Of a stretch of 64,000 nt of DNA, positions 53,996 to 64,000 are shown piece after piece (positions within the stretch are counted from its first letter, which is position 1; the number at the start of each line of letters is the position of its first letter). The position numbers and the translations under genes are program-made. Source of the DNA: Victivallis sp. Marseille-Q1083 (lineage in GTDB: Bacteria > Verrucomicrobiota > Lentisphaeria > Victivallales > Victivallaceae); contig NZ_CAHJXL010000002.1 of assembly GCF_903645315.1 (NCBI RefSeq), forward strand, positions 482,035-546,034, given 5' to 3'. Under the pieces are notes generated by a model. The model was not told the DNA's origin and ran no database searches. It saw nothing but the letters and a program-made list of their open reading frames with translations.

Positions 53996-54210
53996 ATGAG
54001 TAATGTAGCGCCAGTGGATGAAAAAGTCCTGTCGAAAGCCTTTAAAATCGACGAAAAAGAGATAAAAAGCCATCTGTCTAGCTTGGTTAAAGAGTCGGTC
54101 GAGGAGACGAGATGCAGCACGTGTCGGTGCTGGTCGCCATCGGCGTCAATAATGACGGTTATCGTGAGATATTGGGCATCGCCGAGGGATATCGATACAG
54201 TTATACATAG
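53996..54210 (+). pseudogene. IS256-family (mutator-type) transposase remnant with internal deletion
   Basis: The first frame (from 53996) reads SNVAPVDEKVLSKAFKIDEK and VKESVEET, an IS256 N terminus. After a shift near 54110 the next frame reads QHVSVLVAIGVNNDGYREIL and GIAEGYR, the catalytic-core segment that normally lies about 150 residues further on. The middle, with the first catalytic Asp, and the whole C terminus are gone. A left end like TAACGTCCAGAAAATTGCGC starts near 53887; the right end was not found. It is non-functional. Confidence 0.75.
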
Positions 54211-54503
54211 TATTTCTTTTTACTTTTCAGCCAGTGTACAAGGCTGCGCTTTTCAATAAGCACTTTGCCGGATTGTGCTTCGGAAAGCTTACTGATTTCG
54301 ATATCGCCACGCCTGGCGGCCCGATACAACGTTGACCGACTGCAATTAAAAACCGCAGTAGCCGCTTTTACTTCAATGTAAAGCTGCGGATCGCAGTCAC
54401 GTTGTTCATTCGCACACTCAAGCAGTTGCTCCAAGTTGATATCATAGGGGGCAAGAAGAATATCAATCGCTTTTATGATCTCGTTTGGAATTTTTGCGTT
54501 CAT
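54201..54503 (-). CDS. Helix-turn-helix/excisionase-like DNA-binding protein
   Basis: This 100-residue protein has a C-terminal excisionase/MerR-like winged helix. EVKAATAVFNCSRSTLYRAA is the helix-turn-helix, followed by RRGDIEISKLSEAQSGKVLI and EKRSLVHWLKSKKKYYV, the wing and final helix with the typical W. The N-terminal helices (IPNEIIKAIDILLAPYDINL) are unique. The gene lies about 390 bp before tRNA-Ala, the kind of position favoured by integrative elements, so it may be a recombination directionality factor left behind by one (inference). Its 3' end overlaps the IS256 remnant by 10 bp. Confidence 0.65.
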   Translation of the reverse strand: MNAKIPNEIIKAIDILLAPYDINLEQLLECANEQRDCDPQLYIEVKAATAVFNCSRSTLYRAARRGDIEISKLSEAQSGKVLIEKRSLVHWLKSKKKYYV

Positions 54504-54891: not shown

Positions 54892-54968
54892 GGGGATGTA
54901 GCTCAGTTGGCTAGAGCGATACGTTCGCATCGTATAGGTCATGGGTTCGACTCCCACCAGCTCCACCA
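54892..54968 (+). tRNA. tRNA-Ala (CGC)
   Basis: A 77-nt cloverleaf with encoded CCA. The acceptor GGGGATG/CAGCTCC includes the G3-U70 wobble that identifies alanine tRNA, discriminator A73, anticodon stem ATACG/CGTAT and loop TTCGCAT (anticodon CGC). An A5-G68 mismatch in the acceptor and an A49-C65 mismatch in the T stem are unusual and may mean a weakened minor tRNA. Confidence 0.88.
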
Positions 54969-54984
54969 TTTTTGAAGTCAAAAA

Positions 54985-55023
54985 CCAGTAGTAATCAATG
55001 AGTTACTGCTGGTTTTCTTTTTG
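54985..55023 (+). terminator. Rho-independent terminator after tRNA-Ala
   Basis: A 10-bp stem CCAGTAGTAA / TTACTGCTGG (one G-T pair) with an 8-nt loop is followed by TTTTCTTTTTG. Confidence 0.8.
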
Positions 55024-55222
55024 TCTGAAATGCGTGAAAAAACCTGCAAAAACCCGCTTTTTGATGCAAAAAAAATAAAAAGTCCCGCATTTTTTACGCA
55101 TTTTTCGGGGCCGTTTTTGGATGTAATTTCCTGTCTTAACTTTGTATAGCTTAAAGATTTACCATGTCTGCTAAAATAGTATTTTTTGGCTATACTCGGA
55201 AAAAAACGTTATTTTCACACCA

Positions 55223-55248
55223 CCACGGAACCAATATTGGTTCCGTGG
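55223..55248. repeat. Perfect 26-bp palindrome
   Basis: CCACGGAACCAAT followed directly by its reverse complement, with further CACCA/GGTGG pairing outside. It lies in a gene-free stretch (55024-55283) between tRNA-Ala and the broken primase gene. It could extrude as a cruciform or bind a dimeric protein. Confidence 0.7.
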
Positions 55249-55259
55249 TCAGGTGGTCT

Positions 55260-55305
55260 GGTTTCTACGTATTTGCAAGATAAATTACCAAATACGAAGG
55301 AAACC
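55260..55305. repeat. Imperfect hairpin next to the palindrome
   Basis: GGTTTCTACGTATTTG (55260-55275) pairs with CAAATACGAAGGAAACC (55289-55305) with one bulge. It overlaps the first visible codons of the primase fragment, so it marks or lies close to the 5' truncation point. Confidence 0.55.
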
Positions 55306-55329
55306 AAGAATGTGCCAGCAACCCACTTA

Positions 55330-56226
55330 GAATTTATCCCTAAATAACAGTTGAAAACATGAAAAATATTGCTATATTATCATCAAACACTAGAAGGAGA
55401 ATATGGCAATGAATTCGTGGGAAGTCTCTGATACTTTTTGGTCGAAGGTCGAACCTTTGATTCCTCGTGCAAGGCGTGATAGCAATCGGGAGTATCAGCG
55501 TCGTCGCGGAGCGGGACGCAAACCGTTGGAAGCGCGTCGAGTATTTGAGGGTATCGTGTATGTTTTGCGAACGGGAATACAATGGAAAGCGCTTCCCCGC
55601 GAATACGGGAGTTCAAGCAGCATACATCGTTATTTTCAGCGCTGGTCGAAAGCCGGATTGTTTCAAAAATTGTGGAAGAAAGGTTTGGCGGAATACGATG
55701 AATTGGAAGGGATTTCCTGGCGTTGGCAAAGTATCGACGGAGCAATGAACAAAGCCCCATTGGCCCGGGAAGCAGTAGGTCCCAATCCCACAGACAGGGG
55801 AAAAAAATGGGACCAAACGTCACGTTCTCGTAGACGAGCGTGGCATCCCGTTGTCAATAGTCGTAACCGGAGCAAATCGGAATGATGTTACGCAAGTGAA
55901 TGCCGTTTTGAGCGCAAGAATGAGAAAGCCGCGAGTAAGAACAAAGCAGAATCTTTGTGCGGATGCCGGTTATACCGGCTCTGGAGAAGTTATGAAGGCG
56001 TACCGATATATTCCGCACATCAGACCGCGAGGAGAGGAGAAAATTGCAGTCAGGCAAGGTTATAAAGCTCGACGTTGGATTGTGGAAGTGGCCCATTCAT
56101 GGTTCAATCGCTTCAGAAAACTTCTGGTGCGTTTTGAAAAAACACATGCCGCATATGAAGCATTGTTTCAACTGGCGGCATGCATGATTATTTATAAAAA
56201 ACTTGCAGTTATTTAGGGATAAGTTC
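55330..56226 (+). mobile_element. IS5-family (IS427-like) insertion sequence, complete
   Basis: The 897-bp element has ends GAATTTATCCCTAAATAAC (left) and its near match GAACTTATCCCTAAATAAC (right, reverse strand). It is flanked by TTA direct repeats at 55327-55329 and 56227-56229. It interrupts the primase gene. It is related to the truncated copy at 20993. Confidence 0.85.
55403..56216 (+). CDS. IS5-family transposase, two frames joined at a G4A7 tract
   Basis: Frame one (55403-55885) holds the IS5 N-terminal DUF4096-like domain (WEVSDTFWSKVEPLIPRAR, YVLRTGIQWKALPREYG) and the first Asp region (SWRWQSIDGAMNKAPL, VGPNPTDRGKK). Frame two, +1 relative to it, runs KNGTKRHVLVDERGIPLS, VVTGANRNDVTQ, CADAGYTG and VEVAHSWFNRFRKLLVRFEK to 56216, containing the second Asp and Glu of the DDE triad. 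The frames join in GGGGAAAAAAA (55797-55807). One base fewer there would fuse them into a normal ~270-residue transposase. Since the other IS5 relative here has the same +1 relation, slippage may be part of expression. Confidence 0.85.
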
Positions 56227-56254
56227 TTAATGAATTCTGCGAAATATGGGCTAA

Positions 56255-57835
56255 CCTGAATATTGCGTAAATTTTCAAAAACAAAGAGGCAGATTCTCGA
56301 CTAACGTATTATATTGTAATATCTTACATCACAATATAACGCCGAGGTCTGCCAATGACAAAATGTAATGTTTCGATTCCGGTCTTTCAAGGTCCGAAAA
56401 GCAGAAAAATTGAATTCAATTTCGCCGGTGGAGATATCAGCAGTGACGGCGGGTTGCTTTTTGTGAAAGAATTCGACCGCAAACTCGGTTTGACCCGGCG
56501 CGCCGGTAACCTGCTGGATTCTTTTGATCTTCGACAGCCCGGAAAAGTTGAGCATTCCTATCTGAGCATGCTTCGTCAACGAGTTTTTGGTTTGGTTGCC
56601 GGCCATGAAGATCTCAATGACCATCATGAATTGCGAACTGATCCGCTGATTCAAACTGTTGTCGGTCGTGATCGTCAACTCGCCACTCCAAGCACTTTAT
56701 GTCGATTCGAAAATGGAATCGATCGTCGTGCTTGCGTAGATTTGAGCCGATTGTTTGTCGAATTCTTTATCGAAAGTTTTTCCACGCCGCCTCGAGAATT
56801 GATTCTTGATTTCGATGCTACCGATGACCTCACTTACGGGATGCAGGAAAATCGCTTTTTTCATGGCTATTATGACCACTATTGCTTTTTGCCGTTGTAT
56901 GTTTTCTGCGGGGATCAATTGCTTGTGGCTTATTTGCGTCCATCAAAAATTGATGCGGCCAAGCATGCTTGGGCGATTCTCTCGCTACTGGTAAAGCGCT
57001 TTCGGCAGAAATGGCCGAAGGTTAAGATTATTTTCCGGGGAGACAGTGGCTTTTGTCGGCAGAAAATGCTGAACTGGTGTGATAAAAATGAGGTCAAATA
57101 TATTGTCGGATTGGCGAAAAATCCACGTTTGCTGGAATTATCAAAAGATCTTCAAGTGAAAGCGGAAGCACTTTACAACGAAACACATGAAAAAGCAAAA
57201 CTGTTTACTCAGTTCGAATATGCGGCAGGAACTTGGAAATACCCGCGCCGGGTGATTGCCAAAGCGGAATTCAACTCCCCCGGACCGAATAATCGTTTTA
57301 TCGTCACCAATCTTGATGATGATGGACAATATCTTTATGAAAAAGTCTATTGCGCCCGAGGTGAGATGGAAAACAGGATCAAGGAACAGCAGCTGGATCT
57401 TTTCGCTGATCGGACGAGCTGCCATGACTTTGCGGCAAATCAATTCCGGCTTCTGCTTTCAAGTTTGGCTTATATTCTCATGGAACGGTTTCGGGCATTG
57501 TTGTTGACAGGAACTCAATTTGCCGAGGCTACCTGCGGCAGCATTCGCTTATACCTGGTGAAAATCGGTGCCATTATTCGGCGGAATACCAGAAAAATTT
57601 ATGTTGCTCTTTCAAGTGCTTGTCCAAATCAGGAACTCCTCCGCTTGATCGCTGCGAAAATCATCGCTTGGGAATAAAACCTTGGAGAGCTGTCCCCGGC
57701 TCGCCGAACAACAACGGGGGAAAGGGGGAATATGCTCAATTTGCAAAAAAACGACAATATCCGACTCTGAAAATAAAAACTTCCGAATCTTCTGAACATT
57801 TCTCGACGATTCGAAAGTTTCATGCAACATTCAGG
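56255..57835 (+). mobile_element. IS1380-family insertion sequence, copy 2 (intact)
   Basis: The 1581-bp element has left end CCTGAATATTGCG and right end GCAACATTCAGG. It is flanked by CTAA at 56251-56254 and 57836-57839. It is inserted in the primase gene 24 bp past the IS5. An IS4 lies 7 bp after its right end. Confidence 0.92.
56355..57677 (+). CDS. IS1380-family transposase
   Basis: This intact 440-residue transposase belongs to the IS1380 (DDE group 1) family. The N-terminal part is IEFNFAGGDISSDGGLLFVK, the first Asp is in LILDFDATDDLTYGMQENRF, and the second is in IIFRGDSGFCRQKMLNWCD. The C-terminal half is ARGEMENRIKEQQLDLFADR, which carries the Glu, and FRLLLSSLAYILMERFRAL. The ATG at 56355 is in the same context as the two other copies (GAGGTCTGCCA before it). 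It is the reference copy for the decayed gene at 18057 and the partial gene at 63277. Confidence 0.94.
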   Translation: MTKCNVSIPVFQGPKSRKIEFNFAGGDISSDGGLLFVKEFDRKLGLTRRAGNLLDSFDLRQPGKVEHSYLSMLRQRVFGLVAGHEDLNDHHELRTDPLIQTVVGRDRQLATPSTLCRFENGIDRRACVDLSRLFVEFFIESFSTPPRELILDFDATDDLTYGMQENRFFHGYYDHYCFLPLYVFCGDQLLVAYLRPSKIDAAKHAWAILSLLVKRFRQKWPKVKIIFRGDSGFCRQKMLNWCDKNEVKYIVGLAKNPRLLELSKDLQVKAEALYNETHEKAKLFTQFEYAAGTWKYPRRVIAKAEFNSPGPNNRFIVTNLDDDGQYLYEKVYCARGEMENRIKEQQLDLFADRTSCHDFAANQFRLLLSSLAYILMERFRALLLTGTQFAEATCGSIRLYLVKIGAIIRRNTRKIYVALSSACPNQELLRLIAAKIIAWE

Positions 57836-57842
57836 CTAAACG

Positions 57843-59291
57843 CAATACTGCTTACTTTAATCAATAAAGCATTCATGCGGAGCAGTCTTGGATGAAAACT
57901 CCTGCTTGATGTTCCATCCTTTGATTTTGCGTTTTACTGCCCGTTCTCGTGTAATCCCGCGAGAAGACCAGGCAGTTGTTGCCGCAATCTCCAGAATGAT
58001 TGCTTCGCGAATAAACTCAATTTCCTGTGGTTTGAGGGGGAAAATGAGCAACAGTGATTTTTCTGCACAGAATTCGTACCGCATTGATAAAGGAAAGCCG
58101 GTCTGGATCGACCTTATTTTTCCGTGCGGCTTGATGTATTAAGCTGCGAATCGTATAGTGCGCAAGTAGATATCCAAACAATTCCTGTATAATCAATTCC
58201 GGGGTTTTGCTTCGCAAGGCGGCTCCTGGTTGCTTCAGATGATTCTTCAATTCATCATAAGCCAATTCGATCTCCCAGCGCTCGTGGTAGAGAGCCGCAA
58301 GTTCCGAAGCCGGAGCGTCTTCCTCTTTTAAAATACTGGTTATCAAGCGATATTTTTCGCTGGAGCCTTTGATGGCATATTCAATTACTCGAACAGGAAT
58401 GCCATTGGTTTTCTTGCGTTGTTCCGCGCCAGGATAGAACGTACTTAAAAAAGAACCGTCCGGCAGAATTTTTTCTTTTGCAAATTTCATATTGCTGCGG
58501 ATTCGAAACACTAACGATGCGCCAGTTTTGATGCATTCGGAAAAGAACGGATAGCAACCAAAGCCACGATCAGCAAGTAGCAGCATATCCTTTTGCAGGA
58601 GCGGCAAAAGTCGTTTGCCTTGAGTATTTTCCCCTTCAGAATAAGGCCCATGGGCCGCACCAATAATCGCACGCGTACCGATTTCAAGTAAAGTTGTCAT
58701 GCGCAATTGCGGAAATGCGGTTTTCCCGCGGGAGCATGGCGGACGGCCAAAAAAATCATGATTCCTCTGCTCATCCGGTAAATCAAAGGTTGTGCCGTCG
58801 ATTGCCATCAAACGCCATCCCCGATAAAAGGCGCCAATGGTATCCGGCTGGGCCAGGGGTTTACAAACATCCTCGAATAAACATTGCATTGCCTTGTACC
58901 CCAAACGGTTCCTGGCACGTGAAATTCCTCCTCGCCCTTTGATCTCGCCGCAAGGCATTTTTATCTTCAGCCAGTCAAAGCCCTCAAGAATGCAGCGCAA
59001 AACCTCTTGCAACGAAATGCTTGAATACAGCGAAAGACAAATAACATAATAAGCCATCAATTCCAGTGGCAGTTTGCGGTAACGTTGCGTCGCAAGTCCG
59101 CACTTGGTCAGTGCATTGCAAAGGGCTTCAAAAGGAACAACCCCAAGCAATGAGGCCAAGGTTAAAAAGTCACTCTCGCGAAAATTATCTGCCAACTGCG
59201 CTTTGGTTCGTGCCATATCGAATCTCCTGTTGTCTATGAAGATAATATAGCATGAAATCAATAATATTCAAGAATTAAGTAAGCAGTATTG
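57843..59291 (-). mobile_element. IS4-family insertion sequence, copy B
   Basis: The 1449-bp element has the same inverted repeats as copy A (CAATACTGCTTACTT). It is flanked by a perfect 10-bp duplication AGGCTAAACG at 57833-57842 and 59292-59301. The left copy of that duplication includes the last three bases of the IS1380, so the IS4 arrived after it. Confidence 0.94.
57857..59216 (-). CDS. IS4-family transposase, two frames joined by an apparent +1 shift
   Basis: Nearly identical to copy A; the differences I see are Q4K, L-to-P in the FGR-PPC segment and A-to-V near the frame end, with a few in the tail. Frame one runs 59216-58017 and holds DGTTFDLP, ADRGF and YHERWEIELAYDELK. The +1 frame continues to 57857 with the family tail SSRGITRERAVKRKIKGW. 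The shift point is the C5 run (plus-strand GGGGG 58036-58040). Both copies keep the tail open although substitutions have accumulated, which mildly favours a used +1 shift over simple decay. Confidence 0.85.
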
Positions 59292-59353
59292 AGGCTAAAC
59301 GGGTATTCGATCTAAATTTCAGAACTATTTCCAGCCCTTTTGGTTTTTCAGAC

Positions 59354-60019
59354 TTGACGACTCAGACCCTGTTGACGGCCTCGGAAGCCATCAGTGGAGC
59401 CTTGTGTTCTTCTAGAGGCGAATTCGTCAAGAAAGCTGTTGGCGGAGACTATTTTCAGACGGCCCAGAAATTCGAAAACCTTAAGAAGAAACATCATGGG
59501 ACCTTCTCGTTGATTATAGTTACTAACCACAAAATGTCGGTAAAATTTGAAGGCAAGGGGCAAGAATGGAAAGACCGAATGCTGCCGATTTTGTTCCATC
59601 ACCATATTCCTGAAGAAAAACAGGATCGAACTCTTGTCGATCGCCTGCTGGCGGAAGAAGGCAGCGGTATTTTAAACTGGATTCTTGATGGAGCAAGGCA
59701 TGTGCGGAGCAGCAATTGGCGGATTGAGCTGACTGCAACGCAGAAGGTTCGTCGCGACAAGCTGGTGGACGAGATTCGGTCGATGGACATGTTTGTCTGC
59801 AACTATATCAGACGCTCTGCCGGTAATGAATTCTCATCAAGGTCGGCTTATGCCACCTATATCAGACACCAGAGAGACCTAGGACTTGAATTCCTTGAAG
59901 AAGCGGCTTTTTACAAACGTCTTGCAAAGTCCATGGGAACGGAATATAATGCCGTCGGCTGTAATTCCATCCATGGACAGAGAATTCGTGGCTACAAGGG
60001 CTTCGAGTTGCTTGACTGA
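59354..60019 (+). CDS. Remaining open part of the primase-helicase C terminus
   Basis: This 221-residue frame is the largest surviving piece of the broken primase gene. It could in principle start at TTG 59354, but that lies within the ancestral coding sequence and has no ribosome binding site. It contains FVKKAVGGDYFQTAQKFENL, LIIVTNHKMSVKFEGKGQEW, RMLPILFHHHIPEEKQDR, EEGSGILNWILDGARH and a C-terminal winged-helix-like tail (SSRSAYATYIRHQRDLGLEF). A free protein is unlikely to work without the missing ATPase half. Confidence 0.7.
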   Translation: MTTQTLLTASEAISGALCSSRGEFVKKAVGGDYFQTAQKFENLKKKHHGTFSLIIVTNHKMSVKFEGKGQEWKDRMLPILFHHHIPEEKQDRTLVDRLLAEEGSGILNWILDGARHVRSSNWRIELTATQKVRRDKLVDEIRSMDMFVCNYIRRSAGNEFSSRSAYATYIRHQRDLGLEFLEEAAFYKRLAKSMGTEYNAVGCNSIHGQRIRGYKGFELLD

Positions 60020-60133: not shown

Positions 60134-60592
60134 ATGCTAATAGAAGCAGAAGAAAAATTCTTCACAGATCGTCTTGAAAAAATGAGCCTTGCCCGAATAG
60201 GCAATGATCCAAAAGAGGAAAATATTGAACCGGAGATTGTCAATGCCGTTCCTATACCATCTGCAAGTTCTTCTGAGCAGAAAAACGATTCTCTCATCTT
60301 AAGCTTTCAGCAACGATTCCATGTTTCGCCATTTCCGTTGACTGCGGAAAAACTTGAAATCATCGTCAGGGCCATCGACTGGGAGGGACCGCAACACCTG
60401 GGTTTCTTTTACCCGGTTGAATTACGTAAAGAATGTGGAATACTGATTCCATACCCGATCCTGCATTTTGCCGATGTCGGATTTCAAAGGATGCTTGCCA
60501 CGTGGAATTGCAATTTCTGTTTTTTCAAATGCCAGGCAATCGGGACCGTTTTGAACTTCTATTATTATCTGCAATCCAACGGGAGAAAATAA
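60134..60592 (+). CDS. Hypothetical protein of the mobile element
   Basis: I do not recognise this 152-residue protein. It has a charged N-terminal part (EAEEKFFTDRLEKMSLARIG), a Ser-rich linker and a C-terminal domain with LTAEKLEIIVRAIDWEGPQH and a cysteine-bearing segment WNCNFCFFKCQAIGTVLNFY. There is no signal peptide. GGAGG lies 6 bp before the ATG at 60134, so it is a real gene. Its stop is 1 bp before the next start, so both are made from one transcript, probably the same one that once carried the primase. Confidence 0.65.
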   Translation: MLIEAEEKFFTDRLEKMSLARIGNDPKEENIEPEIVNAVPIPSASSSEQKNDSLILSFQQRFHVSPFPLTAEKLEIIVRAIDWEGPQHLGFFYPVELRKECGILIPYPILHFADVGFQRMLATWNCNFCFFKCQAIGTVLNFYYYLQSNGRK

Positions 60593-60593
60593 A

Positions 60594-62114
60594 ATGTGGA
60601 TCACCAAGCAGACAGAAAATGCAGAACAGATCAAGTTGACGGATGCTACTTCAAAAGTTATTATTTGGGCGATCAATCATGCTGATTCACCTGAGATTTC
60701 AAGATTGGGAAATCTGACACATATCCCCTTCTTTCAAGGTTTTTCCAATTCTGACGGTACGATTCTTGTGAATACAAGCACATCGGGAATAACGGTTTCT
60801 AGACAGAAAAAAACATTGAGTTGTAACTATCCTGTAATGCAATCGGCCTCCCCCATGCTTCCGGTTCCATCGTTATACAACATCACTTCTTGGGAATTTC
60901 AATCCATTCTTCAAGAAATACTCGGAAATATTGATTACATCGCTTTGGCAGAAAAGCTCTGTCTGGAGCAAATGGATATGGACTCAATTACAGGCAAGTT
61001 GATCCGTTCTTACGCGGAATTATCCATTCCACGGCCACTGATAGTGGAAACTCCATTACCCATCAAAAACACCACAGGGAACCTTCAATTCCTGTATTGT
61101 CATGATCAAGGTAATGTTTATGAGATGAAGTTCTTCAAGTATAATGACTATCAGGAAGAATACCCTTTTCTCTTCAAACCACGCCAATCCGGAGTCTGGT
61201 TTCCAGAATACAGCTTATCCACCAATCCGTGGCAATTTTCCACTTCGATTCACATCACGCAAGCCAATCCTAGTATGGGATGGATTTGCACTGCTGGTGG
61301 AGCTGATAATTTGAAATGGGAAATATTTCGCCACATTCATTCCGAAATCATTTTGCCGTATTATCCATCAGATCCCCTTTTCAATCGAACTGCTTTGTCT
61401 AAAATATGGCCAATTCTTACCGAAGCCAAGCGACGTAACATTAAAATGCGAGTACGTCAAGTTAAAGCCCAGGAAACAAATCCTATGGCCCCTTACATGA
61501 GCGAATGGGTGAATGATAATGAGACCACCATTCTTGAAGAATCAGAGCTGAAAAAACGTGCATGGGAACAGGGGATCAAGCTTGATCCGATCTGGTTTCC
61601 GAAGCCTTACGAAGTTACCTTGAAGCAAAAAAAATATAACGGAAATCTTCCGTATTTCTGGCCGGCTGGTTCTATCGCATTGTTTGAGTCGAATAGAGCT
61701 GATCTTTTCATGAGAGAATTGTTAAAATATCTTTCAGAAAAAACAAAAGAGAATCGGAATATTGTTGTTGTAATTCCCCATGGTCAAGATGGATATATTC
61801 AGAAGTTTCTCCGTTGTCTGGAAAAAAATACGGCGATCACGATTGTCAATACAGAAATTTTGAAAGATGACTTGGAGTTCGAGATGAAGCTGCGTGAAAA
61901 AAATGCGGATGTCGTTTTTTTCTACGCAGTCAATGATGACTTCAACAAAGAGTTTGAGCGCGGGATTGGCTTGGCAATACAAACCGAGCTTCCGATAGCG
62001 ATTTTCTCGTTTTCGAAAGAAGGCAATAGCCCTCTGTGTGAAGTGGCAGATCACACCTATATTGTGGAGGGCAATATAGATTCGGCAATTAACATACGTG
62101 CAATATTTGCTTGA
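60594..62114 (+). CDS. Hypothetical protein, possibly a degenerate Toprim/RecA-like primase partner
   Basis: This 506-residue protein has no family I can name. By layout it resembles Toprim plus RecA-like proteins of mobile elements. A segment WICTAGGADNLKWEIFRHIH, then SEIILPYYPSDPLFNRTALS and ILTEAKRRNIKMRVRQV, could be a Toprim fold without its DxD. A later FWPAGSIALFESNRADLFMR, NIVVVIPHGQ and EKNADVVFFYAVND could be a RecA-like fold whose Walker A lysine is lost. If so it is a pseudo-enzyme. GGGAGA precedes the ATG. It is tightly linked to the gene at 60134. The last residues may derive from the adjacent IS630 end. This interpretation is tentative. Confidence 0.55.
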   Translation: MWITKQTENAEQIKLTDATSKVIIWAINHADSPEISRLGNLTHIPFFQGFSNSDGTILVNTSTSGITVSRQKKTLSCNYPVMQSASPMLPVPSLYNITSWEFQSILQEILGNIDYIALAEKLCLEQMDMDSITGKLIRSYAELSIPRPLIVETPLPIKNTTGNLQFLYCHDQGNVYEMKFFKYNDYQEEYPFLFKPRQSGVWFPEYSLSTNPWQFSTSIHITQANPSMGWICTAGGADNLKWEIFRHIHSEIILPYYPSDPLFNRTALSKIWPILTEAKRRNIKMRVRQVKAQETNPMAPYMSEWVNDNETTILEESELKKRAWEQGIKLDPIWFPKPYEVTLKQKKYNGNLPYFWPAGSIALFESNRADLFMRELLKYLSEKTKENRNIVVVIPHGQDGYIQKFLRCLEKNTAITIVNTEILKDDLEFEMKLREKNADVVFFYAVNDDFNKEFERGIGLAIQTELPIAIFSFSKEGNSPLCEVADHTYIVEGNIDSAINIRAIFA

Positions 62115-62131
62115 TGGTGTATATTATCATC

Positions 62132-63172
62132 ATGGAAACTCAAGATGCCCGAAAACTCGATAAGGTCGCTCTTGAAGAGCGGCGCAAGCAGGCCGTGAGA
62201 TTGTATCAAAGCGGCAAATGTAATAATTGTACAGAAATCGGAAAAATCGTCGGAGCGCACCGCAACACGGTGGGCAAGTGGATAAGCAAGTGGAAAAAAA
62301 GCGGCTTGTCTGCTTTGAAAGTAAAGAAATGCGGTCGTCCCGTCGGCTTTGGACGCCGTCTGCTTCCGCATGAAGAGAGTAAGATACGGAAAGATTTGGT
62401 CGACCATTGTCCGGATCAGTTAAAATTGCCATTTGCGCTCTGGACTCGTCAGGCGGTACGGTTGCACATCAAGATTTCGTTTGGAATCGAAATACCAGTC
62501 CGAACCATGGGGGAGTACTTGAAACGCTGGGGATTTACGCCGCAAAAACCAGTTAAGAAAGCTTATCAGCGCAATGAGGCGCACGTTCAAAAATGGCTGA
62601 TTGAGGAGTATCCCCGAATCAAAAAGCTGGCAAAATCAGAAGACGCGGATATCTTTTGGGGGGATGAAACAGGAATTCGCAATGACGAGGCCAAGGGCCG
62701 CAGTTATGCGCCGAAAGGCAACACTCCGGTGCAAGCAGTCAATCCGGTACGCGAAAAAGTTAATATGATCAGCGCGATTACCAACCAGGGGAAAACTCAT
62801 TTCATGTTTTACAGCGAAACGATGACGGCTCAACTCCTGATCCAATTCATGGAACGTCTGATTCGTCAAAATGAGCGGAAAGTGTATTTGATTCTGGATA
62901 ACCTGCGGGTTCACCACAGCAAAACGTTGACTGGCTTTCTGCAGGAAAACGCGGCTTTCATCAAGTTATTTTTCTTGCCGAGCTACAGTCCCGACCTGAA
63001 CCCGGATGAATATCTCAACCGCGACTTGAAATCAAATCTGAACAACAAGCCCTTGGGACGCGCCAAAGGAAAAATAACCGAACATGCCAAGCAACATATG
63101 GAAATGATAGCTGAACAACCGGAACGAATCAAGAAATTATTCCATTCCAAGACTGTTTTATATGCAAGTTAG
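62132..63172 (+). CDS. IS630-family transposase
   Basis: This 346-residue protein has an N-terminal helix-turn-helix (CTEIGKIVGAHRNTVGKWIS) and the IS630/Tc1-like DDE domain. DIFWGDETGIRNDEAKGRSY carries the first Asp, VYLILDNLRVHHSKTL the second, and YSPDLNPDEYLNRDLKSNLN the final Glu. The ATG at 62132 is preferred; other starts at 62111-62114 overlap the previous gene. Family members insert at TA. I could not fix the inverted repeats. The right end is close to 63172, where an IS1380 begins. Confidence 0.92.
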   Translation: METQDARKLDKVALEERRKQAVRLYQSGKCNNCTEIGKIVGAHRNTVGKWISKWKKSGLSALKVKKCGRPVGFGRRLLPHEESKIRKDLVDHCPDQLKLPFALWTRQAVRLHIKISFGIEIPVRTMGEYLKRWGFTPQKPVKKAYQRNEAHVQKWLIEEYPRIKKLAKSEDADIFWGDETGIRNDEAKGRSYAPKGNTPVQAVNPVREKVNMISAITNQGKTHFMFYSETMTAQLLIQFMERLIRQNERKVYLILDNLRVHHSKTLTGFLQENAAFIKLFFLPSYSPDLNPDEYLNRDLKSNLNNKPLGRAKGKITEHAKQHMEMIAEQPERIKKLFHSKTVLYAS

Positions 63173-63176
63173 TTAG

Positions 63177-64000
63177 CCTGAATATTGCGTAAATTTTCAA
63201 AAACAAAGAGGCAGATTCTCGACTAATATATTATATTGTAATATTTTACGTGACAATATAACGCCGAGGTCTGCCAATGACAAAATGTAACGTTTCGATT
63301 CCGTTCTTTCAAGGTCCGAAAAGCAGAAAAATTGAATTCAATTTCGCCGGTGGAGATATCAGCAGTGACGGCGGGTTGCTTTTTGTGAAAGAATTCGACC
63401 GCAAACTCGGTTTGACCCGGCGCGCCGGTAACCTGCTGGATTCTTTTGATATTCGACAGCCCGGAAAAGTTGAACATTCCTATCTGAGCATGCTTCGTCA
63501 ACGAGTTTTTGGTTTGGTTGCCGGCCATGAAGATCTCAATGACCATCATGAATTGCGAACTGATCCGCTGATTCAAACTGTTGTCGGTCGTGATCGTCAA
63601 CTCGCCACTCCAAGCACTTTATGTCGATTCGAAAATGGAATCGATCGTCGTGCTTGCGTAGATTTGAGCCGATTGTTTGTCGAATTCTTTATCGAAAGTT
63701 TTTCCACGCCGCCTCGAGAATTGATTCTTGATTTCGATGCTACCGATGACCTCACTTACGGGATGCAGGAAAATCGCTTTTTTCATGGCTATTATGACCA
63801 CTATTGCTTTTTGCCGTTGTATGTTTTCTGCGGGGATCAATTGCTTGTGGCTTATTTGCGTCCATCAAAAATTGATGCGGCCAAGCATGCTTGGGCGATT
63901 CTCTCGCTACTGGTAAAGCGCTTTCGGCAGAAATGGCCGAAGGTTAAGATTATTTTCCGGGGAGACAGTGGCTTTTGTCGGCAGAAAATGCTGAACTGGT
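63177..64000 (+). mobile_element. IS1380-family insertion sequence, copy 3 (cut by window edge)
   Basis: Left end CCTGAATATTGCG as in copy 2, preceded by TTAG (63173-63176), which is the reverse complement of the CTAA found at copies 1 and 2. It begins right after the IS630 transposase stop. The sequence is nearly identical to copy 2 and runs off the window. Confidence 0.9.
63277..64000 (+). CDS. IS1380-family transposase, N-terminal part
   Basis: The first ~241 residues match the intact copy at 56355 almost exactly, differing only at a few positions near the start (for example PFF for PVF and DIRQP for DLRQP). The first two catalytic Asp segments (DFDATDDLTYG, FRGDSGFCRQ) are present, and the frame is open to the edge. 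It is probably a functional recent copy. Confidence 0.92.
   Translation, partial: MTKCNVSIPFFQGPKSRKIEFNFAGGDISSDGGLLFVKEFDRKLGLTRRAGNLLDSFDIRQPGKVEHSYLSMLRQRVFGLVAGHEDLNDHHELRTDPLIQTVVGRDRQLATPSTLCRFENGIDRRACVDLSRLFVEFFIESFSTPPRELILDFDATDDLTYGMQENRFFHGYYDHYCFLPLYVFCGDQLLVAYLRPSKIDAAKHAWAILSLLVKRFRQKWPKVKIIFRGDSGFCRQKMLNW

What the first reader, a model, noticed from the sequence alone, without database searches (positions are those of the whole stretch)
55284..60019. A primase-helicase gene is restored by removing three nested insertion sequences
Taking out IS5, IS1380 and IS4 at their own target duplications (TTA, CTAA, AGGCTAAACG) joins three pieces into one open frame with continuous P4/D5-type helicase sequence. 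Three insertions within about 30 bp of original sequence mark a strong landing site and give an order of events: IS4 came after IS1380. This identifies the host of the IS pile-up as a plasmid- or phage-type replication gene, so 55-62 kb is a dead integrated element.
Basis: partly seen in the sequence, partly recalled or inferred. Interest (0 to 1): 0.72.

Follow-up and report, generated by a model that had tools for sequence, protein, structure and literature searches.

The report
Beheaded mobile element beneath nested insertions
The three jumping genes are really there, but they do not simply interrupt one gene: one of them sits where the front of a mobile element, including its integrase and the front half of a helicase gene, has been lost and DNA from beside a tRNA gene lies in its place.

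Summary
The IS5, IS1380 and IS4 copies and their flanking repeats (TTA, CTAA, AGGCTAAACG) are real, and IS4 landed after IS1380. The central claim fails. Only the right piece (59295-60019) is helicase: the C-terminal half of a D5/DUF5906-type gene. Intact relatives (97% identical over the fragment in G067, 71% in a Victivallaceae MAG) have a Walker A motif just upstream of that point. The two short left pieces match neither. They belong to a tRNA-flank sequence, "X", which recurs with the same IS5 52.5 kb downstream behind a tRNA-end repeat (2 mismatches in 1305 bp); two other X copies lack the IS5. So IS1380 joins X to helicase. Equal CTAA flanks say little, because IS1380 targets YTAR here. 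About 217 N-terminal codons, the excisionase-like gene and the element's integrase gave no match in this 99.7%-complete genome, apart from a 70% integrase elsewhere. "Dead integrated element" holds, but it probably runs to C2:589.5 kb and encloses Ssp-type defence genes. Caution: the assembly joins pieces inside some IS1380 copies with single Ns, so the X-IS1380-helicase link needs reads. The three-piece join was not made (referred).

The parts
54892..54968 (+). tRNA-Ala (CGC); its last 19 bases (54950-54968) recur with 1 mismatch at G000:C2:589514 and a 17-base part with 1 mismatch at C2:334217
55330..56226 (+). IS5-type element (DUF4096 transposase, second part in another frame), TTA flanks; same insertion in the C2:589.5 kb copy of X
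56255..57835 (+). IS1380-type element (440-aa DDE transposase); left flank CTAA belongs to X, right flank CTAA to the helicase gene: rearrangement junction
57843..59291 (-). IS4-type element (414-aa transposase), 10-bp repeats 57833-57842 and 59292-59301 that include the IS1380 right end
59295..60019 (+). C-terminal half of a D5/DUF5906-type helicase gene (P0001 from 59303); Walker A, D5_N and start missing
60134..60592 (+). small gene of the same element (152 aa here; 179 aa in G067), no family match
60594..62078 (+). first ~497 codons of a 535-aa gene of unknown family, cut by a 3-kb IS insert; its tail lies at C2:547082-547204
62111..63172 (+). DDE_3/winged-helix transposase, first part of the 3-kb insert
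63177..64000 (+). start of a second IS1380 copy, which the assembly carries to window-equivalent 65036 through two single-N joints

Best explanation
A tRNA-Ala-integrated mobile element lost its integrase end by an IS1380-mediated rearrangement. Shown in the assembly: the IS1380 at 56255-57835 has tRNA-flank sequence X on its left and the middle of the element's helicase gene on its right, and what lies between the tRNA and this point in an intact relative (integrase, DUF4357 gene, excisionase-like HTH, helicase codons 1 to about 217) is not found at this place. Inferred: one IS1380 sat at a CTAA in the helicase gene and another at a CTAA in a copy of X. Recombination between them (between an occupied and an emptied tRNA site, or within a tandem array), or an IS1380-driven adjacent deletion, fused X to the rest of the element. 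IS5 was in X before X was duplicated. IS4 inserted at the IS1380/helicase boundary. The remnant lacks the helicase's ATP-binding motif and has no integrase-domain match in its interval, so it is very probably immobile.
For: Homology to G067 starts exactly at the CTAA right of IS1380. Pieces 1 and 2 recur in X copies followed by other DNA (L084 TCAGAAAA..., L085 an IS4 relative), with 2 mismatches in 1305 bp in L084 and the same IS5. The 4.1-kb integrase-to-helicase stretch of G067 finds one place in the genome, a 70% match to its integrase part at C2:311 kb. 7 integrase-domain places in the genome, none between C2:537 and 590 kb. The right copy of the IS4 repeat carries the IS1380-terminal AGG joined to helicase sequence, where G067 has ACC, so an IS1380 end stood at this helicase CTAA whatever the assembly did elsewhere. 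IS1380 flanks are YTAR-like; of 30 full copies 22 have equal flanks (the window copy is one) and 8 unequal. PMC11708052 (passages read) names recombination between IS copies and adjacent deletions as frequent causes of missing target duplications.
Against: Equal CTAA flanks are also what a simple insertion leaves. IS1380 copies are too alike to show a crossover point. That TCAGAAAA... is the ancestral continuation of X is not proven, and X could be the left end of another tRNA-targeting element. G067 is of another genus, and no att-like repeat was found at the far end of its element. The assembly holds single-N joints with 137-bp overlaps inside IS1380 copies, so some IS1380 flanks, this one and some of the 8 unequal ones included, could be misjoined.
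Confidence: 0.75

Rival explanations
1. One reading: one helicase gene, interrupted in turn by IS5, IS1380 and IS4, with its sequence still present in three pieces.
For: Fitting target repeats at all three IS and an open frame over 24 codons; one of four protein comparisons of the left pieces (piece 1 against L004) is reached by only 15 of 500 shuffles.
Against: Two intact relatives have Walker A sequence there instead; pieces 1 and 2 lie in tRNA-flank copies elsewhere in the genome; the open frame has probability 0.215 by chance; the N-terminal codons would still be missing.
Confidence: 0.03
2. A variant of the best explanation: X is itself the left end of a second tRNA-targeting element; the array was X-element, helicase element, X-element, and a deletion between two directly repeated IS1380 copies removed what lay between.
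For: X follows tRNA genes or tRNA-end repeats at several places, twice behind a tRNA-end repeat (C2:334 and C2:589 kb).
Against: No integrase-domain match lies just behind any X copy, and IS sequence follows X at the window, L085 and L086. X could equally be an old repeated tRNA flank.
Confidence: 0.3
3. Assembly artefact: pieces ending inside different IS1380 copies, or inside the two near-identical X copies, were joined wrongly.
For: IS1380 has about 30 near-identical full copies; X has a near-identical second copy; in the stretches scanned, single-N joints with 137-bp overlaps lie inside or at IS1380 copies (C2:546933, C1:2615990; C2:546035 has a 137-bp overlap with some difference).
Against: No N in the window. 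The IS4 repeat ties an IS1380 end to the helicase CTAA. A misjoin should leave the missing helicase front elsewhere in the assembly, and one search did not find it. Either way the left pieces are not helicase.
Confidence: 0.17

Closest known systems
D5/DUF5906-type (SF3-like) helicases of phages and integrative elements
   Same: Intact relative L028 matches D5_N above the cut-off and DUF5906 below it, and PHROG primase/helicase families; the fragment matches phrog_1156 at 4.5e-19.
   Different: The window copy keeps only about codons 218-458 of 458; the fragment tested from 59354 gives no Pfam match at 0.1.
IS-mediated deletions and recombination between IS copies (PMC11708052, passages read)
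   Same: An IS sits exactly at the junction of two sequences not adjacent in the intact relative.
   Different: Here the flanking 4 bp are equal, probably because both targets fit the YTAR preference, so the junction looks like a simple insertion.
IS4-family target specificity (PMC2266710, passages read); IS231A in Tn4430 ends is recalled, not looked up
   Same: About 10-bp duplications, and marked target preference of some elements of the IS4 subgroup.
   Different: Here the target is mostly of the form AGG-YTAR, which IS1380 makes at its own ends.
tRNA-targeted integrative elements and satellites
   Same: G067: tRNA-Ala, tyrosine integrase, excisionase-like HTH, replication-type genes.
   Different: The type (satellite, plasmid-like, prophage remnant) was not settled; structural genes were not searched for systematically.

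Membership tests
D5/P4-like primase-helicase | C-terminal helicase domain sequence | tested here: met
   phrog_1156 4.5e-19, phrog_1829 1.5e-16 for P0001; 97% to the intact G067 gene
D5/P4-like primase-helicase | Walker A (P-loop) and D5_N domain in the window copy | tested here: not met
   Walker A lies before VFDLNF in L028 and L004, D5_N in L028; the window copy starts after them, and their DNA was not found in the genome
D5/P4-like primase-helicase | primase domain | tested here: inconclusive
   The PHROG families are named primase, but the intact 458-aa protein matches mostly their C-terminal parts
IS1380 family | DDE_Tnp_1_4 transposase and 4-bp duplications | tested here: met
   PF13701 1.1e-156; 22 of 30 full copies with equal 4-bp flanks. 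That PF13701 marks IS1380 is recalled
IS4 family, IS4 subgroup | ends -AATR and 10-13 bp duplications | tested here: met
   ends CAATA, 10-bp repeats at the window copy and at L100; table of PMC2266710; PF13006 4.8e-16
IS5 family | DUF4096-type transposase, short target duplication | tested here: met
   PF13340 5.2e-24; TTA, with natural empty sites. Subgroup not tested
tRNA-integrated mobile element | tRNA-end repeat at the far end | tested here: met
   19 bases with 1 mismatch at C2:589514-589532; in the G067 relative no such repeat was found
tRNA-integrated mobile element | own integrase in the interval | tested here: not met
   no PF00589 match between C2:537 and 590 kb; present in the G067 element
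prophage | structural and packaging genes | not tested
   only selected proteins of the element were scanned

The most novel reading that the evidence does not exclude
IS1380 insertion builds the preferred target of this IS4-type element (its terminal ATTCAGG plus the YTAR duplication), so the two form a relay: IS1380 spreads, IS4 lands on its ends, and such nested pairs mark rearrangement points. 8 of 11 IS4-type loci in the genome have IS1380 transposase sequence within 1.5 kb, and in 7 of the 11 ATTCAGG ends 7 bases before the IS4 edge. Two of the 7 share the same flank and may be one event copied; only two of the 7 have equal 10-bp repeats on both sides.
Probability: 0.45. Interest if true: 0.4.

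Novelty: new member of a known kind. Interest (0 to 1): 0.3.

Why it matters
It is a clear example of a trap in reading sequence by eye: equal target repeats on both sides of an insertion sequence do not prove a simple insertion when the element prefers a narrow target. Taking the insertions out on paper would have given a gene that probably never existed. If the junction is confirmed by reads, it also shows how a defence-carrying element can become fixed at a tRNA gene by losing its integrase end.

Tried and rejected
Reading the left pieces as helicase: rejected. Looking for the missing front part elsewhere in the genome: not found, apart from the 70% integrase match. Looking for the att-like repeat at the far end of the G067 element: only the tRNA itself with up to 2 mismatches in 19 bases in C12:1-51999, and no shorter core in the 1.2 kb beyond the last shared gene. 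Relatives of the helicase fragment in viral contigs: 3, at 26-30%; in genome contigs: L004 and two at 25-29%. Relatives of the 547-aa protein in viral contigs: none. Structure of that protein (first row L004, second row the window piece): mean pLDDT 33.5, pTM 0.22, of no use; no structural claim is made. A supposed IS1380 variant with internal duplications, which I had noted, is withdrawn: the repeated parts meet at single Ns with 137-bp overlaps and look like assembly joints. Because of that I raised the odds of an assembly artefact and lowered those of the best explanation and of the IS relay. Literature: (Victivallis with insertion sequence) gave 3 papers, listing only, none of use; two searches were listings that changed nothing; PMC1525189 was seen in a listing only.
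Full report
What was checked. The window is G000:C2:482035-546034 of a 4.82-Mb genome in 5 contigs, 99.72% complete. The finding proposes that three insertion sequences interrupt one helicase gene and that taking them out leaves one open frame. I did not make that join, because the gene looks like a phage- or plasmid-type replication gene; the pieces were tested apart against intact relatives.

The insertions. Reading: IS5-type 55330-56226 between TTA repeats; IS1380-type 56255-57835 between CTAA repeats; IS4-type 57843-59291 between AGGCTAAACG repeats. Pfam puts the transposases in DUF4096, DDE_Tnp_1_4 and DDE_Tnp_1/Nterm_IS4. The IS4 repeat holds the last three bases of IS1380, its CTAA and three bases more, so IS4 came after IS1380.

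The helicase fragment. 59303-60019 translates to 238 residues and matches PHROG primase/helicase families, best phrog_1156 at 4.5e-19. In the genome it occurs once; the next match is 25% identical and a third is not significant. Of 78 genomes of the family searched, 16 have a match at 1e-10 or better; five, the window's own included, have one of 43% identity or more: G067 97%, G008 71%, G012 44%, G064 43%. A 71% relative also stands in a named MAG, CALXXL010000019.1 (L004); its contig has the same length as that of G008, so it may be the same sequence.

The junction. In G067 the intact gene is 458 aa; VFDLNF, where P0001 begins, is residue 221, and the Walker A motif GEGGCGKS starts at 199. 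In L004 these are 235 and 213 of 472. The window matches G067 from CTAAACGGGTATTC rightward; to the left G067 has GACC and the Walker A codons, while the window has the end of IS1380 followed by IS4. Pieces 1 and 2 match the loci of four relatives no better than shuffles of themselves: best 23, 20, 21, 24 of 47 mismatches (198, 29, 60, 200 of 200 shuffles as good) and 8, 8, 8, 10 of 25 (53, 83, 33, 193 of 200) for L028, L030, L031, L032. In L028 the best place of piece 2 lies inside the helicase gene (minus strand, 11335), but some 530 bases from the junction. Peptides of the pieces, three frames, scored against two intact helicases were reached by 158 and 15 (piece 1; L028, L004) and 450 and 162 (piece 2) of 500 shuffles. 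L028 matches D5_N (5.8e-9) and DUF5906 (6.5e-5, below the curated cut-off).

Where the left pieces come from. 54969-55330 has 9 match rows in the genome: the window itself, C2:589533 (100%), C2:334234 (90%), C1:3474812 behind a tRNA-Val (75%), two rows of one locus behind tRNA-Ala (GGC) on C1, and three minus-strand rows that are its palindrome. The alignment with L084 runs from 54950, inside the tRNA end, through IS5 and piece 2 to CTAA: 1305 bp with 2 mismatches. L084 then continues with TCAGAAAAATATCC, not IS1380. L085 carries the IS5-free site and piece 2 exactly, then an IS4 relative. So the left pieces are tRNA-flank DNA, here called X. In the listed rows of the family search the other genomes match only up to about base 290 of 631 of this region, the tRNA and its edges; the list was cut.

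What was lost. In G067 the order from tRNA-Ala is: integrase, a 493-aa DUF4357 gene, excisionase-like HTH, helicase, 179-aa gene, 535-aa gene, and further on RhuM, a clamp-like protein, PD-(D/E)XK nuclease and DUF932. From the CTAA rightward the window genome keeps this order at 93-95% DNA identity in four blocks to C2:551777; the RhuM gene (L028 7209-8288) falls in a gap between blocks. The 4.1-kb stretch from behind the tRNA to helicase codon ~217 finds one place in the genome, a 70% match to the integrase part at C2:311 kb, beside a second tRNA-Ala.

How it most likely happened. IS1380 targets in this genome are YTAR-like. Of 30 full copies examined (of 48 match rows), 22 have equal 4-bp flanks (CTAG 8, TTAG 7, CTAA 5, TTAA 1, GTAG 1, the window copy counted) and 8 unequal, one of them with an N and one with TAAA. 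With so few target types, two independent sites share the same 4 bp in about 0.29 of cases (my arithmetic from the 22). The IS1380 therefore probably joins two insertion sites, one in X and one in the helicase gene. Recombination between an occupied and an emptied tRNA site, a deletion in a tandem array, and an adjacent deletion all fit; the data do not choose. IS5 lies in both near-identical X copies, so it preceded their duplication.

A caution on the assembly. On re-checking I found single Ns at C2:546035, C2:546933 and C1:2615990, and three in L080, among the 8 stretches and the IS1380 and IS4 loci scanned; at two of them the two sides overlap exactly by 137 bp. These lie in or at IS1380 copies and look like joints between assembly pieces. 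The window has no N, but the link across its IS1380, or across the near-identical X, could be wrong. Against that: the right copy of the IS4 repeat has the IS1380-terminal AGG fused to helicase sequence, so an IS1380 did stand at that CTAA; and the missing helicase front was found nowhere else. The left pieces are not helicase in either case.

The element today. The tRNA-end repeat at C2:589514 suggests an interval of 52.5 kb. It has no integrase-domain match. It holds Ssp-type phosphorothioation defence genes at C2:562-574 kb: matches to SspA/DndA, SspD, SspF, SspG, DndH/SspH, and the C-terminal part of SspC. G067 has what look like ordinary chromosomal genes soon after the shared part (by eye). 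The 535-aa gene is also cut, by a 3-kb IS insert; its tail lies at C2:547082-547204. The 535-aa gene (at 1e-5) and the helicase at 43% or more occur in the same five of 78 genomes.

IS4 at IS1380 ends. The 13 match rows make 11 loci if two interrupted copies are counted once each. IS1380 transposase sequence lies within 1.5 kb of 8 of 11; in 7, ATTCAGG ends 7 bases before the IS4 edge; in the eighth, L106, IS4 lies between internal IS1380 parts. The three without are L108, L109 and L110/L111. Of the 7, the window copy and L100 have equal 10-bp repeats; L101, L102 and L103 do not; L105 and L107 are an interrupted copy and one with inverted flanks; L103 and L105 share a flank that reads TTGG instead of YTAR. 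IS1380-type right ends of the form CATTCAGGYTAR number 37 in the genome, and three of them (C2:539862, C2:501563, C1:1595608) have an IS4 beside them.

Verdict. The observation of three nested IS is sound. The site is most likely an IS1380-marked rearrangement that beheaded a tRNA-integrated element. Interest is modest: an ordinary kind of event, with one side observation (IS4 on IS1380 ends) worth a test.

Noticed in passing
C2:546035 and C2:546933 (just right of the window), C1:2615990: Single Ns inside IS1380 copies; at C2:546933 and C1:2615990 the two sides overlap exactly by 137 bp: probable assembly joints, so layouts that look like IS1380 with internal duplications are probably artefacts.
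   Followed up: yes
G000:C2:562089-573992 (L089): Ssp/Dnd-type phosphorothioation defence genes inside the tRNA-to-repeat interval.
   Followed up: partly
window 54969-55329 and copies on C1 and C2: Sequence X with a palindrome and a second hairpin follows several tRNA genes or tRNA-end repeats; whether native flank or element end is open.
   Followed up: partly
G000:C2:310672-334222 (L088, L085): A second tRNA-Ala (CGC), by eye beside a sigma-factor-like gene, with an integrase and a tRNA-end repeat 23.5 kb away: perhaps another element at a like site.
   Followed up: partly
window 54201-54503: HTH_17 / excisionase-like gene on the other side of the tRNA, perhaps a remnant of another element.
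   Followed up: no
window 60134-62078 and L028 8961-11109: Two genes behind the helicase with no match in Pfam or PHROGs at the cut-offs used, except a chance-level one at 0.1; the larger occurs with the helicase in 5 of 78 genomes.
   Followed up: partly
L084 4820-5500: DNA after X at C2:590819: first 122 bases found once in the genome, then a stretch repeated elsewhere at 68%.
   Followed up: no
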